64,000 nucleotides of DNA from Blautia sp. An81. GTDB taxonomy: Bacteria > Bacillota > Clostridia > Lachnospirales > Lachnospiraceae. Below, piece after piece: positions 2,198 to 56,213 of this stretch. The stretch spans positions 186,001-250,000 of the forward strand of contig NZ_NFHH01000003.1 in the NCBI RefSeq assembly GCF_002161285.1. The letters are read 5' to 3'. The notes beneath the pieces are model-generated. The model did not search any database and was not told the origin of the DNA. It worked only from the letters and a program-made list of their open reading frames with translations. Position 1 is the first letter of the stretch. Every line of letters starts with the position of its first letter. A program made the translations under genes and the position numbers.

Positions 2198-3370
2198 ATG
2201 GACAAGAGAGAATTTGCATTAAAGCAGCATGAAGAATGGGCTGGAAAAATTGAAGTAATCAGCAGAGCGAAGATTGAAACACCGGAAGATCTTTCTGTTG
2301 CTTACACACCAGGAGTTGCAGAGCCTTGTGTGGAGATTTCAAAAGATGTAGACCTGTCATATAAATATACACGCCGGGGAAACATGGTAGCGGTTGTTAC
2401 AGACGGAACAGCTGTATTAGGTCTTGGGGATATCGGACCAGAAGCAGGAATGCCTGTTATGGAAGGAAAATGCGCATTATTTAAAACTTTTGCAGATGTG
2501 GATGCTTTTCCTCTGTGCGTACGTTCTAAAGATGTAGACGACATCGTAAAGACTGTAAGTCTTCTGGCAGGAAGCTTTGGCGGTGTAAACCTGGAAGATA
2601 TTTCCGCTCCCAGATGCTTTGAAATTGAGAGAAAATTAAAAGAGTGCTGTGATATTCCGATTTTCCATGATGACCAGCATGGAACAGCAGTTGTTACAGC
2701 CGCTGCTCTGATCAATGCCTTAAAACTGGTAGGAAAGAACCTGGATGATATTAAAGTAGTTACTTCAGGAGCAGGAGCTGCAGGTATTGCCATCATCAAA
2801 CTGTTAGTAAGCCTGGGTCTGAAGAACGTGGTTATGTGTGACCGTCACGGAGCAATTTATAAAGGCCGTGAAAACCTGAATAAAGAAAAAGAAGAAATGG
2901 CAGAAATCTGCAATCAGAATATGGAGAAGGGAACTCTGGCAGAAGTACTGAAAGGCGCCGATGTATTTATTGGCGTTTCCGCGCCTGGTACAGTTACTGA
3001 GGAAATGGTACAGAATATGGCAGAAAAACCAATCCTTTTCCCAATGGCAAACCCAGTTCCGGAAATCATGCCAGACCTGGCTAAAAAAGCAGGCGCTGCT
3101 GTTGTAGGAACAGGAAGAAGCGATTTCCCGAACCAGATCAACAACGTACTGGCATTCCCAGGTATCTTCAGAGGTGCTCTGGATGTGCGTGCGAAAGATA
3201 TCAATGATGAGATGAAGGTAGCAGCAGCATATGCTATTGCTGGATTGGTAGAAGAAGACAAGCTGTCTCCAGACTACATCATTCCAAATGCATTTGACAA
3301 ACGTGTGGCTAAAGCCGTAGCGGAGGCAGTAGCCGAAGCAGCTCGCAAGACAGGCGTAGCAAGAATTTAA
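2198..3370 (+). CDS. NAD(P)-dependent malic enzyme
   Basis: Oxidative decarboxylation of malate to pyruvate and CO2, giving NAD(P)H. At 390 residues it is the short bacterial type without the phosphotransacetylase extension. The N-terminal domain has YTPGVAEPC with the catalytic Tyr, then GLGDIGPEAGMPVMEGK with the catalytic Lys, FHDDQHGTA with metal-binding Asp, and the NAD-binding motif SGAGAAGIA near residue 190. AAAGGAGAG precedes the ATG. It follows the LDH/MDH-like gene closely; together they would run oxaloacetate to malate to pyruvate, or the reverse. A terminator follows. Confidence 0.95.
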   Translation: MDKREFALKQHEEWAGKIEVISRAKIETPEDLSVAYTPGVAEPCVEISKDVDLSYKYTRRGNMVAVVTDGTAVLGLGDIGPEAGMPVMEGKCALFKTFADVDAFPLCVRSKDVDDIVKTVSLLAGSFGGVNLEDISAPRCFEIERKLKECCDIPIFHDDQHGTAVVTAAALINALKLVGKNLDDIKVVTSGAGAAGIAIIKLLVSLGLKNVVMCDRHGAIYKGRENLNKEKEEMAEICNQNMEKGTLAEVLKGADVFIGVSAPGTVTEEMVQNMAEKPILFPMANPVPEIMPDLAKKAGAAVVGTGRSDFPNQINNVLAFPGIFRGALDVRAKDINDEMKVAAAYAIAGLVEEDKLSPDYIIPNAFDKRVAKAVAEAVAEAARKTGVARI

Positions 3371-3430
3371 TTTTATAATTTGTTAGTTGTGAACCAGGTT
3401 AATGTTTGAAACCTAAACAAGTAAAAATAA

Positions 3431-3472
3431 AAAAGACATTTCGTATCGAAGAGGATACGGAATGTCTTTTTT
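3431..3472 (+). terminator. Rho-independent terminator after malic enzyme
   Basis: Inverted repeat AAAAGACATTTCGTATC with its complement around a short loop, ending in TTTTTT. Confidence 0.9.
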
Positions 3473-3582
3473 GCTAAGAAATTTTCTTTTTTATATTTTT
3501 CCTAAAAAAAGAATGATAAATGTTCGGGTATGTGTTAGAATACAAATGATGAATGTGTTTTTTTAACATGCTTTTGTAATGC

Positions 3583-52399: not shown

Positions 52400-53710
52400 A
52401 TGGAAGAATATTTAAAGACGCTGTTGGAGCAGATCCGGTGTAAAAAAGCCAGAAGTCTCATAGAGGAAGAACTGAGAGGCCATCTGGAAGAACAGATAGA
52501 AGAAAACCGGATGTCAGGTATGGAACCGGAAGAAGCGGAAAAAGCCGCTGTCCTGGATATGGGAGATCCGGTCCAGACGGGAATCTCTCTGGATGGAATC
52601 CACCGGCCCCAGATATCCTGGAGACTGGTGATTCTTGTAGGTGCAGTCAGTCTTCTGAGTATTGTCCTTCAGATGGCAGCAGGACTCAGCCAGAATCCTG
52701 CTGGAGGAATAGCTGGAGGACTGGACCACAGCCTGTATGTAATTTTTGGTTTTGCCCTTATGCTCGTAATTTATCGGATGGATTACAGTTTTCTTGGAAA
52801 AAACGCTCTGTGGGTGACTTTGGGTTTCTTCCTGATGCTGCTTTTCTTTAGAATATTGTCCATGCCGATTAACGGAACTTATATATGGCTATCCATCGGG
52901 AATGTCAGTATTTCACTGGGAGCTTTGCTATATTTATGGCCTCCTTTATATGGAGCTCTTCTTTATAGATATTATGGCCAGGGATATAAAGGAGTTGCCA
53001 AGTGCTTTCTGTGGACCTTATTTCCTCTATGGTATGCCTGGACTTTCCCTGATATAGGCCTGGCTTTCGTTATTTTTTTTGCAAGTATGATCCTTTTGTC
53101 TCTTGGGATTATTCAGGGATGGTTCCGGATCAAGAAGGGAAGGACTCTGGCTGTTATATGGGGAGCGGCTATTTTTCTGCCGGCTTTTTACCTTTTGTGG
53201 GGAGTGTTTTTTCATGGATTTGAAGCTTATCAAATGGAACGCCTGACTGTGTATTTAAGGGGAGAAAACAGAGCAGTCAGCATGCTGGCAGGCAGCCGCT
53301 GGTTTGGAAAAGGTGCAGAAATGGATGTTGCAAAAGCAGTTGAGTATAACAGTGACTATATACTGAGCTATTTATGCTCCTGTTATGGAATCCTAGCGGC
53401 TGTTTTTATTGCGGTTTTAGTTCTCGGACTGATTTTCGCAGCAATAAAAATTGCAGGGAAAGGGAAAAACCGTTTTGGGAAAATGATTGGCTTTGCCAGC
53501 GGACTGTCTCTGCTTCTGCCGGCAGGAATCAATGTCCTGGTGAATCTTGGGCTGATCCCTGGGATGAACACCTTTCTGCCTTTTCTGTCTAAGGGAAATT
53601 CCTACCTGTTGGTATCCTATATTCTGCTTGGGCTGATGTTAAGTGTATACCGGTATAAAAACATCCTTTCAGAAAAGGCATGCCGGAAGGCAAAGCCGGC
53701 GGTAAAATAA
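52400..53710 (+). CDS. SEDS (FtsW/RodA/SpoVE)-like membrane protein with permease-prefix domain
   Basis: 436 residues. N-terminal soluble helical domain (residues 1-70: RSLIEEELRGHLEEQIEE, ILDMGDP-like LDMGDPVQTG), as found in PadR-linked membrane proteins, then about ten helices. The C-terminal end PFLSKGNSYLLVSY matches FtsW/RodA PFLSYGGS..., and YNSDYILSYLCSCYG corresponds to the TDFIF...E segment whose Asp is catalytic; that Asp is present but the following Glu pair is not. Probably a stress-inducible glycan polymerase relative or an inactive homologue. Controlled by the PadR gene 3 bp upstream. Confidence 0.85.
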   Translation: MEEYLKTLLEQIRCKKARSLIEEELRGHLEEQIEENRMSGMEPEEAEKAAVLDMGDPVQTGISLDGIHRPQISWRLVILVGAVSLLSIVLQMAAGLSQNPAGGIAGGLDHSLYVIFGFALMLVIYRMDYSFLGKNALWVTLGFFLMLLFFRILSMPINGTYIWLSIGNVSISLGALLYLWPPLYGALLYRYYGQGYKGVAKCFLWTLFPLWYAWTFPDIGLAFVIFFASMILLSLGIIQGWFRIKKGRTLAVIWGAAIFLPAFYLLWGVFFHGFEAYQMERLTVYLRGENRAVSMLAGSRWFGKGAEMDVAKAVEYNSDYILSYLCSCYGILAAVFIAVLVLGLIFAAIKIAGKGKNRFGKMIGFASGLSLLLPAGINVLVNLGLIPGMNTFLPFLSKGNSYLLVSYILLGLMLSVYRYKNILSEKACRKAKPAVK

Positions 53711-53797
53711 GAAAATCAGAGAATTACAGGAGATTTTTGCAGATCGCTGACAAAGGTCTTCTGTGATTTTTCTGCTTTTATGGTTTTACAGATCTGC
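53708..53797. repeat. Copy A of the duplicated tmcAL 3' end
   Basis: Matches 54531-54622 with four substitutions in the first 76 bp and a 2-bp gap after. It starts at the stop codon of the SEDS-like gene. In the minus-strand reading frame the differences are three synonymous third-position changes (Val, Ser, Thr codons) plus one Val-Ile. Still contains AATTACAG...CTGTGATTTTT, so it also acts as a terminator for the SEDS gene. Confidence 0.85.
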
Positions 53798-53889
53798 TAA
53801 TTGACGCAGATACTTTAAAGGACTACAATATTATTAAAGCAGATGACATGAATGGAAGTGATGGTGAAAAATACATTCATTGTTCATGA
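53791..53889 (+). pseudogene. Possible gene fragment inside the TA cassette
   Basis: An open stretch without start codon reads LIDADTLKDYNIIKADD then MNGSDGEKYIHCS and stops. It looks like a protein tail, not random sequence. The promoter 53801-53829 lies within it. Family not recognised. Confidence 0.3.
53801..53829 (+). promoter_or_regulatory. Promoter of the DUF4258/YgiT cassette
   Basis: TTGACG 53801-53806, 17-bp spacer, TACAAT 53824-53829, immediately after copy A of the repeat. Confidence 0.6.
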
Positions 53890-53910
53890 TATAAGCTAAG
53901 GAGTGGTTAA

Positions 53911-54225
53911 ATGGATTTAAAAATATTCCAGACACTATGTGCAGAATCTAAAATCATCTGGACGCAACACGGATTGGAACGAATGCAGGAACGTGATATC
54001 AGTCGAGCAGATGTTAAAAATGGAATTGCAAGTGGAGAAATCATTGAAGAATATCCGGACGATTATCCTCACCCAAGCTGTTTGATTTTTGGGTATACTG
54101 TTAACGGCAGGATTTTGCATATTGTAGCTGGATGTGATAGTATAAATGTATATATCATAACAGCATACTATCCAGACAGCAGAAAATTTGAAGATGATCT
54201 GAAAACCAGAAGAAAGGGGAAATAA
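53911..54225 (+). CDS. DUF4258 protein, probable toxin of a type II toxin-antitoxin pair
   Basis: 104 residues. WTQHGLERMQERDISRADVKNGIASGEIIEEYPDDYPHPSCLIFG, then LHIVAGCD and IITAYYPD make a typical DUF4258 pattern; the family resembles RelE/MqsR-type RNase toxins. The gene next to it encodes a YgiT-type zinc-finger antitoxin (2 bp gap). AAGGAG precedes the ATG by 8 nt. RNase activity is inferred. Confidence 0.88.
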   Translation: MDLKIFQTLCAESKIIWTQHGLERMQERDISRADVKNGIASGEIIEEYPDDYPHPSCLIFGYTVNGRILHIVAGCDSINVYIITAYYPDSRKFEDDLKTRRKGK

Positions 54226-54227
54226 TT

Positions 54228-54455
54228 ATGTGTATGTTTTGCAAGAATGCGACAACTGTTCAAAGCACTACAACTCATGTGGTAAACTATAAAAACTGTA
54301 TTATTGTAATTAAAAATGTTCCCTGTCTTGAATGTGATCAGTGCGGCGAGAAATATTATACAGATGAAGTGGCTGAAAAACTGGAAGTAATTGTAAATAT
54401 GGCTAAAAAGCTGATGCAGGAGATTGCAGTCATTGATTATCAGCAGGCAGCATAA
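54228..54455 (+). CDS. YgiT-type zinc-finger antitoxin
   Basis: 75 residues. Zinc site MCMFCKN...PCLECDQCGEKYYTDEVAEKL (CxxC and CxxC), as in the N-terminal domain of MqsA. No C-terminal HTH domain, so DNA-binding autoregulation as in MqsA is not obvious. Paired with the DUF4258 gene. Confidence 0.88.
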   Translation: MCMFCKNATTVQSTTTHVVNYKNCIIVIKNVPCLECDQCGEKYYTDEVAEKLEVIVNMAKKLMQEIAVIDYQQAA

Positions 54456-54480
54456 ATAAGAGACAGCAATTCCCCAGCAA

Positions 54481-54527
54481 CCGCCCAGCATGTATGATGA
54501 CATACTTGCTTGACTAGCTGCTGGCGG
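54481..54527. repeat. Palindromic hairpin at the right edge of the TA cassette
   Basis: CCGCCCAGCA (54481-54490) pairs with TGCTGGCGG (54519-54527) with one bulge, and GTATG/CATAC (54492-54505) form an inner stem around ATGA. It stops 3 bp before copy B of the flanking repeat. A weaker inverted repeat ATCTGC/GCAGAT (53792-53811) marks the left edge. Confidence 0.55.
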
Positions 54528-54530
54528 AAT

Positions 54531-54622
54531 TAAGAAAATCAGAGAATCACAGGAGATTTTTGCAGATCACTGACAAAAGTCTTCTGTGATTTTTCTGCTT
54601 TTACGGACTCATACAGGTCTGC
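54531..54622. repeat. Copy B of the duplicated tmcAL 3' end
   Basis: The functional coding copy: codes the last ~27 residues of TmcAL on the minus strand. AATCACAG...CTGTGATTTTT in it also forms a plus-strand terminator. Confidence 0.85.
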
Positions 54623-55810
54623 ACAGAACAGATCTTTTTCAAAAGCTTTTCTGCAATCTTCCGGAAGCATTTTCCGATAATCGGCAGCTTTGGTGATCAC
54701 AGGGATCCGGCTGCTGTCCTGAAGCATGCGCAGAAGAGAGGAACTTTCCTTTCGGAAGCCCAGGAGCCGTACATAGCCGGGAGTTTCTGACATATCCTCC
54801 TTGGTGATGGACAGAAGGATATGGAGGAGAGCACGGCTGATCCGGGTATAAGTCATTTCTCTGGTTTTTAAAAGAGAAATAAACTGAGAAAAGGAAGCAA
54901 AATGATTTCGTTCCCTGATGATCCTTCTGGCCAGGTCTAAAGACACATCGGCAAAACCAGCAAGCTCTTCCGGAGTATGGAGCAAAAGCCGGTATTTCAG
55001 AAGAAGAGAAAAATCATCTTCCGTTACAGGAAGGTCCCAGGACAGTAAATCTTTTGTAAAAGCAGCCACAGAATCCGGCTGGGTATAGGCCAGAAGTTTT
55101 TCTAAAGGCATATCCTCGTATTTTGGACCAGTAAGGAGCCGACGGACAGCGGTGGCGCTGGAAAGGGGCTGAGAGAGGCTTTCGTCGTGATATCCGGCCC
55201 CTTCTCTTTTTACAGTAACAGGAGATATCCGGCTGTTCAGCCGGGAAAGGGCTTTGCAGTATTCAATTCCCAGAAGATTGTTAGGACTGTCCAATAAATT
55301 TTCGATTCCGGAAAAAAGGGCATCTCCGGAGAAACTTTGGTCGTGACGGGCTTCCAGATATTTTTTTAATGCTGATTTTCTTGCAGCAGGAAAGGGAAGT
55401 CCTTCTTTTAATGAATCCCGCAGGAAGTTTTGAAATTCTTCAGGCTCCTTGTCTAGGACTTGTCCCAGCTTCTGACAGGAAACAACGTCTCCGGATTCGC
55501 TGCCAAAGCACAGGTGATCCACGCAATCCAAAGCGTCCAGGATTCCTACGGCCCCCTTGGAGAAATATTCGGCACTTCCGCAGGCCCAACAGGAGGGCAG
55601 CTCCAGTACTGCGTCAGCCCCTCCCAGAAGAGCCATTCGGGTTCTGGCATATTTATCAAAGACAGCAGGAGCTCCTCTCTGAACAAAGTCTCCGCTCATG
55701 ATCACAAGGACATACCGGTCACCGGTGAGTTTCCGGGCTTGCTTTATCTGATAGCCGTGGCCTTTGTGAAAGGGGTTGTATTCTGCAATGATTCCTGTAA
55801 TAGCTTCCAT
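54539..55810 (-). CDS. tmcAL: tRNA(Met) cytidine acetate ligase TmcAL
   Basis: 423 residues (formerly YlbM). Uses ATP and acetate to make N4-acetylcytidine at the elongator tRNA-Met wobble base. Nucleotidyltransferase motifs GIIAEYNPFHKGHGYQI at the start and GDFVQRG, LPSCWACGSAEYFS; C-terminal helical domain. The 3' end is repeated 0.8 kb away, with a TA cassette between. It is transcribed convergently to the cassette. Confidence 0.95.
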   Translation of the reverse strand: MEAITGIIAEYNPFHKGHGYQIKQARKLTGDRYVLVIMSGDFVQRGAPAVFDKYARTRMALLGGADAVLELPSCWACGSAEYFSKGAVGILDALDCVDHLCFGSESGDVVSCQKLGQVLDKEPEEFQNFLRDSLKEGLPFPAARKSALKKYLEARHDQSFSGDALFSGIENLLDSPNNLLGIEYCKALSRLNSRISPVTVKREGAGYHDESLSQPLSSATAVRRLLTGPKYEDMPLEKLLAYTQPDSVAAFTKDLLSWDLPVTEDDFSLLLKYRLLLHTPEELAGFADVSLDLARRIIRERNHFASFSQFISLLKTREMTYTRISRALLHILLSITKEDMSETPGYVRLLGFRKESSSLLRMLQDSSRIPVITKAADYRKMLPEDCRKAFEKDLFCADLYESVKAEKSQKTFVSDLQKSPVIL

Positions 55811-55993: not shown

Positions 55994-56213
55994 AAATGTG
56001 GGGTCTTTTTTAAAGGAGCTGCCCCAAGAACCCCTATGTCAGGAATATTTATACATTTTATGCGAATTTGTCGAGCACAGCTTTGAGACCATAGGCTCAA
56101 AGTTGTGCGGACTGAGCAATAAAATGTATAAATATTCTCGATACAGGTAAATTGGGCGGTTTTTTCGAGAAGTCCTCACCTGAGATTATCTAATGATAGC
56201 GGAGGAAGAAAAA
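55994..56213 (+). promoter_or_regulatory. Long structured mRNA leader of ackA
   Basis: A very long hairpin occupies 56043-56137: GAATATTTATACATTTTAT (56043-56061) pairs perfectly with its complement at 56119-56137, and GCACAGCTTTGAG (56075-56087) pairs with CTCAAAGTTGTGC (56096-56108). Outside it AGCTGCCC (56017-56024) can pair with GGGCGGTT (56154-56161), followed by T's, forming a possible terminator. This looks like a regulatory leader, yet I cannot assign a known riboswitch class; a MITE-like insert with 19-bp terminal inverted repeats is the other option. No gene in 55811-56213. Confidence 0.55.

What the first reader, a model, noticed from the sequence alone, without database searches (positions are those of the whole stretch)
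53708..54622. TA cassette bracketed by two copies of the tmcAL 3' end
The DUF4258/YgiT pair, its promoter and edge palindromes occupy ~730 bp between copy A (53708-53797) and copy B (54531-54622). Copy B is the real end of tmcAL; copy A is 72 of 76 identical over its best part. Read in the tmcAL frame, copy A differs by three synonymous third-position changes and a Val-Ile, so it evolved as a coding tail before being stranded. This is what is expected when a mobile cassette inserts in a gene's 3' end and brings a replacement tail (attL/attR-like), yet no integrase is present. It may be a non-autonomous cassette moved in trans.
Basis: partly seen in the sequence, partly recalled or inferred. 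Interest (0 to 1): 0.75.

Follow-up and report, generated by a model that had tools for sequence, protein, structure and literature searches.

The report
Toxin-antitoxin cassette inserted with duplicated target
A 0.7-kilobase toxin-antitoxin gene pair has inserted between two gene ends and is bracketed by two roughly 95-base copies of its landing site; the same kind of pair lies between such repeats in other gut bacteria, which hints at a way for addiction genes to move without a recombinase of their own.

Summary
Copies A and B are a direct repeat (53705-53797 / 54528-54622, 89% over 95 columns). Of eight relatives fetched, the six readable on both sides have the empty site with one tail, so the 730 bp between the copies (GC 0.37; flanking genes 0.45-0.48) is an insertion with a promoter-like site, a DUF4258 toxin gene and a YgiT-type antitoxin gene. 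The repeat is best read as duplicated target: both copies share states absent from those six relatives, and A has lost the tmcAL frame.

It recurs. Of 106 other unique DUF4258/YgiT modules with usable flanks, 20 lie between direct repeats, against 3 of 246 control genes; toxin-centred, 10 of 27 against 1 of 29 (YafQ) and 2 of 29 (HicA). Targets vary (rubrerythrin, tRNA-Gly, a gene start and others; about 20-274 nt). Searches with three recombinases hit none of the 21 repeat-flanked loci. Closest known: insertion with long target duplication, described for restriction-modification genes. I call this a new variant of that kind. The recombination step is unknown, and some loci, above all tRNA and rubrerythrin ones, may work otherwise.

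The parts
52400..53710 (+). FtsW/RodA/SpoVE-type (SEDS) gene, left neighbour; its stop codon is the left edge of copy A
   Evidence: PF01098 E = 8e-21
53705..53797 (+). copy A: duplicated target (SEDS stop plus stranded tmcAL tail), a strong hairpin that could end the SEDS transcript (inference)
   Evidence: direct repeat; empty site in six relatives; fold of 53705-53800 -31.1 kcal/mol, z -4.3
53798..54527 (+). inserted cassette, 730 bp, GC 0.368 (tmcAL 0.477, SEDS gene 0.448)
   Evidence: absent from the six readable relatives; composition
53801..53829 (+). promoter-like site TTGACG-17-TACAAT, starting 3 nt inside the left junction
   Evidence: 10 of 12 consensus positions, best of 7 sites in the stretch scanned, shuffles give 3.7; consensus match only
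53911..54225 (+). DUF4258 toxin gene, 104 aa
   Evidence: PF14076 E = 7e-28; PMC11980606 lists the family among BECR-fold toxins (passages)
54228..54455 (+). YgiT/MqsA-N-type antitoxin gene, 75 aa (zinc-finger half only)
   Evidence: TIGR03831 E = 7e-16; PF15731 E = 3e-5, below its cut-off
54468..54531 (+). hairpin between antitoxin stop and copy B
   Evidence: fold of 54453-54533 -25.5 kcal/mol, z -4.2, 0 of 200 shuffles as low
54528..54622 (+). copy B: live 3' end of tmcAL with stop, same palindrome; left edge fuzzy (54520-54528)
   Evidence: fold of 54528-54625 -39.2 kcal/mol, z -6.9
54539..55810 (-). tmcAL (HIGH nucleotidyltransferase family), intact, 423 aa
   Evidence: PF05636 E = 1e-132; match in 20 of 20 genus genomes

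Best explanation
A small integrase-free DNA segment holding a promoter, a DUF4258 toxin gene, its YgiT-type antitoxin gene and a closing hairpin inserted between the convergent SEDS and tmcAL genes, and about 95-105 bp of target was duplicated. One copy (B) keeps tmcAL complete; the other (A) keeps the palindromic end behind the SEDS gene and decays. This is insertion with long, variable target duplication, as reported for restriction-modification genes, here for a toxin-antitoxin pair. Shown: insertion, empty site, direct repeat, recurrence of the pattern, no recombinase gene in the cassette. Inferred: that the duplication came with the insertion itself (staggered break with fill-in, or illegitimate or homology-assisted joining of a small linear or circular DNA), and that addiction helps such insertions persist. 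The repeats could then let the unit loop out with one target copy and re-enter the same gene end elsewhere; this is the least certain step.
For: Empty site with one tail in the six relatives readable on both sides, of eight fetched. Cassette GC 0.368; one of 19 other genus genomes has a DUF4258 relative, 45% identical. A and B share states not seen in the six relatives. Recurrence: 20 of 106 other unique modules against 3 of 246 control genes at E <= 1e-4, Fisher p = 7e-9; toxin-centred 10 of 27 (window included) against 1 of 29 YafQ and 2 of 29 HicA. Second clean case: G414 has the module between two copies of a 38-nt target (RBS and first codons of a metallo-beta-lactamase-like gene, name by eye), G415 has the site once and no DUF4258 hit, and the G414 cassette begins TTGACA. 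Third: in G384 a 274-nt stretch with the rubrerythrin tail is doubled; five relatives have one forward tail and no DUF4258 hit in the stretch fetched; 7 of 7 decidable differences are in the stranded copy, 23 undecided. In many listed pairs, related modules in different places share little beyond the genes. Hits to three recombinase queries in 11 of 105 loci, in none of the 21 repeat-flanked ones.
Against: No strain-level comparison was possible, so insertion and duplication are not shown to be one event. The A-B difference is uneven (few in the core, many in the last 16 columns), which uniform decay does not predict. tRNA-Gly(GCC) cases (L087, L091, L096) look like ordinary att cores. Not all 20 are clean: L056 has two tRNA-Lys genes, L105 is a repeat-rich array, L075 is a 71% match, L101 holds IS200/IS605-like ORFs (by eye); L139 among the 10 of 27 has rubrerythrin paralogues on both sides. 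In G238 the upstream flank differs from G414 and G415. The recombinase absence is not significant (0 of 21 against 11 of 84, p = 0.12; without the three query loci p = 0.20).
Confidence: 0.68

Rival explanations
1. Site-specific integration in trans: the tail copies are attL/attR of a tyrosine integrase whose attB is the tmcAL 3' end; the cassette is a minimal cis-mobilisable element.
For: Long direct repeat of a gene 3' end with the gene restored. tRNA-Gly(GCC) cases have a 22-25-nt core at the tRNA 3' end. A tail possibly moving with the module at L060/L065.
Against: Targets are diverse, one a gene start (G238/G414), and repeat length varies from about 20 to 274 nt. No tmcAL or tail-pattern match in viral contigs and no cassette match in phage or plasmid records. 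No hit to three recombinase queries in the 21 repeat-flanked loci; other recombinase kinds were not searched.
Confidence: 0.16
2. Relic of a larger integrative element: an ICE or prophage sat between the att repeats and everything but the addiction module was deleted.
For: The genome's two other DUF4258/YgiT pairs lie beside serine-recombinase-like ORFs of 506 and 532 aa; close relatives L041, L043, L046, L048 have serine-recombinase hits within 3 kb.
Against: 22 of the 26 repeat-flanked units span 616-1075 bp in unrelated places (the method sees only units up to about 1.7 kb, so this is weak); a compact promoter-to-hairpin unit begins at the junction here and in G414. Serine recombinases are not known to leave long repeats (recalled).
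Confidence: 0.08
3. The tail was duplicated first (the palindromic end invites slippage or template switching) and the module entered between the copies later.
For: The repeat is a strong palindrome; 8 of 19 upstream copies examined are among the most stable tenth of same-length segments nearby; rubrerythrin flanks hold inverted tail pieces, in G422 even without a module.
Against: None of the eight relatives fetched shows a second tail copy. It would need two events at each locus. The 397-genome tail search is uninformative: only this genome and G016 gave tail-length matches.
Confidence: 0.08

Closest known systems
Insertion with long target duplication of restriction-modification genes (Nobusato et al. 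2000; Furuta et al. 2010; not read, seen as cited in passages of PMC3874152 and PMC3031569)
   Same: An addiction gene pair inserts without a known mobile element and leaves direct target repeats of variable length in the order of 100 bp; the form is said to allow later amplification between the repeats.
   Different: Toxin-antitoxin instead of restriction-modification genes; Lachnospiraceae; seen with one toxin family far more than with two others; recurrent gene ends (rubrerythrin, tRNA-Gly).
CIME / non-autonomous integrative elements (recalled)
   Same: No own integrase, bracketed by direct repeats of a gene's 3' end.
   Different: No cognate integrase found, no common att core, varied targets including a gene start.
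Integron toxin-antitoxin cassettes (recalled)
   Same: Small promoter-bearing toxin-antitoxin cassettes, sometimes in arrays.
   Different: No pair of attC core motifs in the cassette; the repeats are host gene ends.
Transposed genes with flanking repeats in Arabidopsis (PMC2869330, passages read)
   Same: Moved genes flanked by direct repeats matching the target site; loop-out and re-insertion of a circle proposed; 17.5% (14.3% for repeats over 30 bp) of moved genes against 5.9% (2.0%) of others.
   Different: Eukaryote, ordinary genes.

Membership tests
Insertion with long target duplication | Relatives carry the uninterrupted target once | tested here: met
   Six relatives readable on both sides, of eight fetched; also G415 for G414, and five relatives of G384
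Insertion with long target duplication | Direct repeat of target sequence, long and variable in length | tested here: met
   93-105 bp here; about 20 to 274 nt at other loci
Insertion with long target duplication | Inserted unit is not linked to a known mobile element | tested here: met
   Cassette holds only the gene pair; neighbours are housekeeping-like (five proteins Pfam-scanned, the rest read by eye). At the other repeat-flanked loci only three recombinase queries were used, and L101 has IS200/IS605-like ORFs
Insertion with long target duplication | Inserted genes are a restriction-modification system, the only kind described in the passages read | tested here: not met
   Toxin-antitoxin pair; it works like that kind with another gene class
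Insertion with long target duplication | Duplication arose in the same event as the insertion | not testable with these tools
   Needs strains of the same species or an experiment
Cis-mobilisable integrative element (att sites, integrase in trans) | An integrase elsewhere uses the same att site | tested here: inconclusive
   No match in viral contigs, phages, plasmids; host genomes not searched for such integrases
Integron gene cassette | attC with paired RYYYAAC / GTTRRRY core sites | tested here: not met
   One GTTRRRY on the plus strand of the cassette, near the toxin start, no RYYYAAC partner on that strand
DNA transposon or MITE | Terminal inverted repeats and short constant target duplication | tested here: not met
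   The cassette's 40-nt ends show no inverted similarity by eye; duplication about 95 bp
Type II toxin-antitoxin module | Adjacent genes of known toxin and antitoxin families | tested here: met
   PF14076 and TIGR03831
Type II toxin-antitoxin module | Toxicity and neutralisation | not testable with these tools
   PMC11980606 lists the DUF4258 activity as unknown

The most novel reading that the evidence does not exclude
DUF4258/YgiT modules are themselves very small mobile elements of Lachnospiraceae: naked addiction cassettes of about 0.6-1 kb that enter chromosomes with long target duplication, can leave as circles carrying one target copy, and re-enter the same gene ends (rubrerythrin, tRNA-Gly) in other genera by homology, with addiction rather than a transposase driving their spread.
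Probability: 0.27. Interest if true: 0.85.

Novelty: new variant of a known kind. Interest (0 to 1): 0.62.

Why it matters
How chromosomal toxin-antitoxin modules spread without a visible vehicle is an old open question. Here one toxin family carries a repeated footprint (direct target repeats on both sides, a compact unit, empty sites in relatives) that two other toxin families sampled in the same bacterial family rarely show. That gives concrete loci, junctions and empty-site relatives with which to test the movement.

Tried and rejected
Phage or plasmid carriage: blastn of the cassette against 72,556 plasmid and 50,697 phage records gave no match; tblastn of the toxin gave 2 distant plasmid records and no phage; one viral contig holds a 67% relative. 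Integron cassette: rejected on missing core sites. Ordinary transposon: rejected on missing terminal repeats and the length of the duplication. A conserved terminator that merely looks like a copy: rejected, relatives have one copy. Reading the A/B difference as a foreign tail: not supported after comparison with relatives, though not excluded. A travelling tail at rubrerythrin sites: neither shown nor rejected. Solved-structure search of the toxin by sequence: nothing credible.

First controls were looser: 9 of 75 modules against 2 of 320 random segments and 8 of 434 genes at E <= 1e-4; several control hits lay in loci with further repeats or modules, so one search kept controls at least 600 bp from any module. 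Controls were not matched for lying in intergenic 3' regions. Dropped before counts: 4 toxin hits without antitoxin, 13 duplicate modules (124 to 111), the window module and 4 modules with short flanks, 3 of 30 DUF4258, 1 of 30 YafQ and 1 of 30 HicA loci with short flanks (these are the best-scoring 30 of each family search), the two short tRNA-tail loci L087 and L091 in the hairpin test. cast a wider net (1.5-kb flanks, E <= 0.05) and found more, weaker repeats.

For these I lowered the best explanation from 0.70 to 0.68 and the novel case from 0.30 to 0.27, and raised two rivals by 0.01.

Full report
OBSERVATION. The repeat is real. Ungapped, 53705-53783 and 54528-54606 are 94% identical; with one 2-nt gap the match is 89.5% over 95 columns, 53705-53797 / 54528-54622; weaker similarity continues to 53695 / 54520. 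Nothing else in the window comes near. Between the copies lie 730 bp (53798-54527) of GC 0.368, against 0.477 for tmcAL and 0.448 for the SEDS gene, with a DUF4258 gene and a YgiT-type gene, a promoter-like site that starts 3 nt inside the left junction and a closing hairpin, z -4.2. Both copies are strong palindromes (z -4.3 and -6.9): the last codons of tmcAL double as a hairpin between two convergent genes.

EMPTY SITE. tmcAL is found in 20 of 20 genus genomes. I fetched the tail region of the eight relatives with a tail match. Six (G016, G009, G019, G006, G002, G018) match on both sides, and there the SEDS stop TAAG is followed at once by a single tmcAL tail; in G015 the contig ends in the tail and G014 has no SEDS match; each of the eight shows one tail match. 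So copy A stands at the original junction and the gene pair is an insertion. A DUF4258 relative is found in one of the 19 other genus genomes, at 45% identity.

WHICH COPY CHANGED. From, by eye: A and B share TCAGAGAAT and GATTTTTG, absent from the six relatives. The more distant G014 has similar codons there, so these states may be old rather than new; either way both copies belong to this lineage or one near it, not to that of the six. A alone differs from the six at the GTG-GTA site, the Val-Ile site and the 2-nt deletion near 53784. B alone differs at ACAGG. Two sites (ATCG/ATCA and AAAGG/AAAAG) are mixed among relatives. The view that A evolved as a coding tail is thus not supported; A looks like a stranded duplicate that lost its frame. 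A sister strain as source of one copy cannot be excluded.

IT RECURS. A protein search of genome contigs gave 80 DUF4258 loci (best 80 of 186), and PF14076 found a match in 44 of 397 Lachnospiraceae genomes, from which 40 stretches were fetched. Among 124 modules with both genes, 26 have flanking direct repeats at E <= 1e-4 within 600 bp; 111 modules are unique. Without the window: 20 of 106 against 3 of 246 genes lying at least 600 bp from any module, Fisher p = 7e-9. Toxin-centred, on the best-scoring loci of each family search: DUF4258 10 of 27 (window included), YafQ 1 of 29, HicA 2 of 29; without the window 9 of 26 against 3 of 58, p = 0.0009. Not all hits are clean: L056 has two tRNA-Lys genes, L105 is a repeat-rich array, L075 is weak, L101 holds IS200/IS605-like ORFs (by eye), and L139 has rubrerythrin paralogues on both sides.

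WHAT IS DUPLICATED. Targets differ: the rubrerythrin tail (L061/L175), the tRNA-Gly(GCC) 3' end (L087, L091, L096), an rpsI-like tail with terminator (L182), an oadA-like tail (L106/L181), terminator-like sequences (L078, L079) and a gene start (L172); the rpsI, oadA and metallo-beta-lactamase names come from reading peptides. The gene start is the cleanest: G415 has GAGGTGCCCTTATGTACGAACTGATACAGATTACCGAC once and no DUF4258 hit; G414 has it on both sides of the module (one base different in the right copy), the left copy continuous with the native upstream region, and the cassette begins TTGACA; G238 shares module and repeat but its upstream flank differs and its contig ends there. In G384 a 274-nt stretch is doubled (91.6%), while five relatives have one forward rubrerythrin tail and no DUF4258 hit in the stretch fetched; 7 of 7 decidable differences are in the stranded copy, most of them at its left edge, and 23 could not be decided, most for lack of relatives' sequence. 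For L181 the relatives align only up to the gene end.

THE UNIT. In many listed pairs, related modules in different surroundings share little beyond the genes, for example -60 to +4 at 93.9% (L062/L067) and -12 to +3 at 91.9% (L041/L042); other pairs share longer flanks, for example -227 to +163 (L089/L101) (output partly cut). I saw no common terminal sequence, by eye only. 22 of the 26 units span 616-1075 bp. Hits to two serine and one tyrosine recombinase occur in 11 of 105 loci (three are the queries' own) and in none of the 21 repeat-flanked ones; p = 0.12, or 0.20 without the query loci, so not significant.

TENSION. A rubrerythrin gene or tail lies within 1.5 kb of 22 of 111 unique modules. 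In L060, L061 and L065 the module is followed by a short forward, an inverted and a longer forward piece of a rubrerythrin tail, and in L060 and L065 no rubrerythrin gene is within 3 kb upstream (the inverted piece read by eye). There a tail may move with the module, as if a circle of module plus one target copy had re-entered elsewhere. But G422, which has no DUF4258 hit in the fetched stretch, carries a like 54-nt piece (81%) behind its rubrerythrin gene, so the piece may be resident at such loci.

KNOWN. Passages of PMC3874152 and PMC3031569 state that restriction-modification systems insert with long and variable target duplications, in the order of 100 bp, and PMC3031569 suggests that post-segregational killing may promote transfer for toxin-antitoxin systems too. 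Passages of PMC2869330 describe the like for moved plant genes. Passages of PMC11980606 list DUF4258 as a BECR-fold toxin family of unknown activity with MqsA fusions. Six literature searches (listings and starts of abstracts) showed me no report of long target duplication for a toxin-antitoxin family; most subscription papers are not held.

VERDICT. A toxin-antitoxin cassette inserted with long target duplication: a new variant of a known kind. The event that makes the duplication is not shown.

Noticed in passing
L162 (2496-4676) and L163 (542-2787), own genome contigs C1 and C41: The genome's two other DUF4258/YgiT pairs each lie next to a serine-recombinase-like ORF (506 and 532 aa), so the same toxin family also rides on recombinase-bearing elements.
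   Followed up: partly
L060, L061, L065, right of the module; L217 about 2128-2181: Short forward, inverted and longer forward pieces of a rubrerythrin tail follow the antitoxin stop; G422 (L217) has a like inverted piece behind rubrerythrin without a module.
   Followed up: partly
L087, L091, L096; L080, L101, L166: Modules sit behind tRNA-Gly(GCC) with a stranded tRNA 3' end downstream; in L080, L101 and L166 two modules and two tRNA tail copies lie close together.
   Followed up: partly
L182, about 2694-3500: Behind the stranded rpsI-like tail follows another small gene pair that looks like DUF4160/DUF2442 (recalled, not searched); no third tail copy was found.
   Followed up: partly
window 56033-56147: Two 29-nt inverted arms, 86% complementary, 57 nt apart, between tmcAL and an acetate-kinase-like gene (name recalled); possibly a regulatory structure.
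   Followed up: no
window 54528-54622: The last codons of tmcAL form a very stable hairpin (-39 kcal/mol), a coding sequence that may double as a terminator for both convergent genes.
   Followed up: partly
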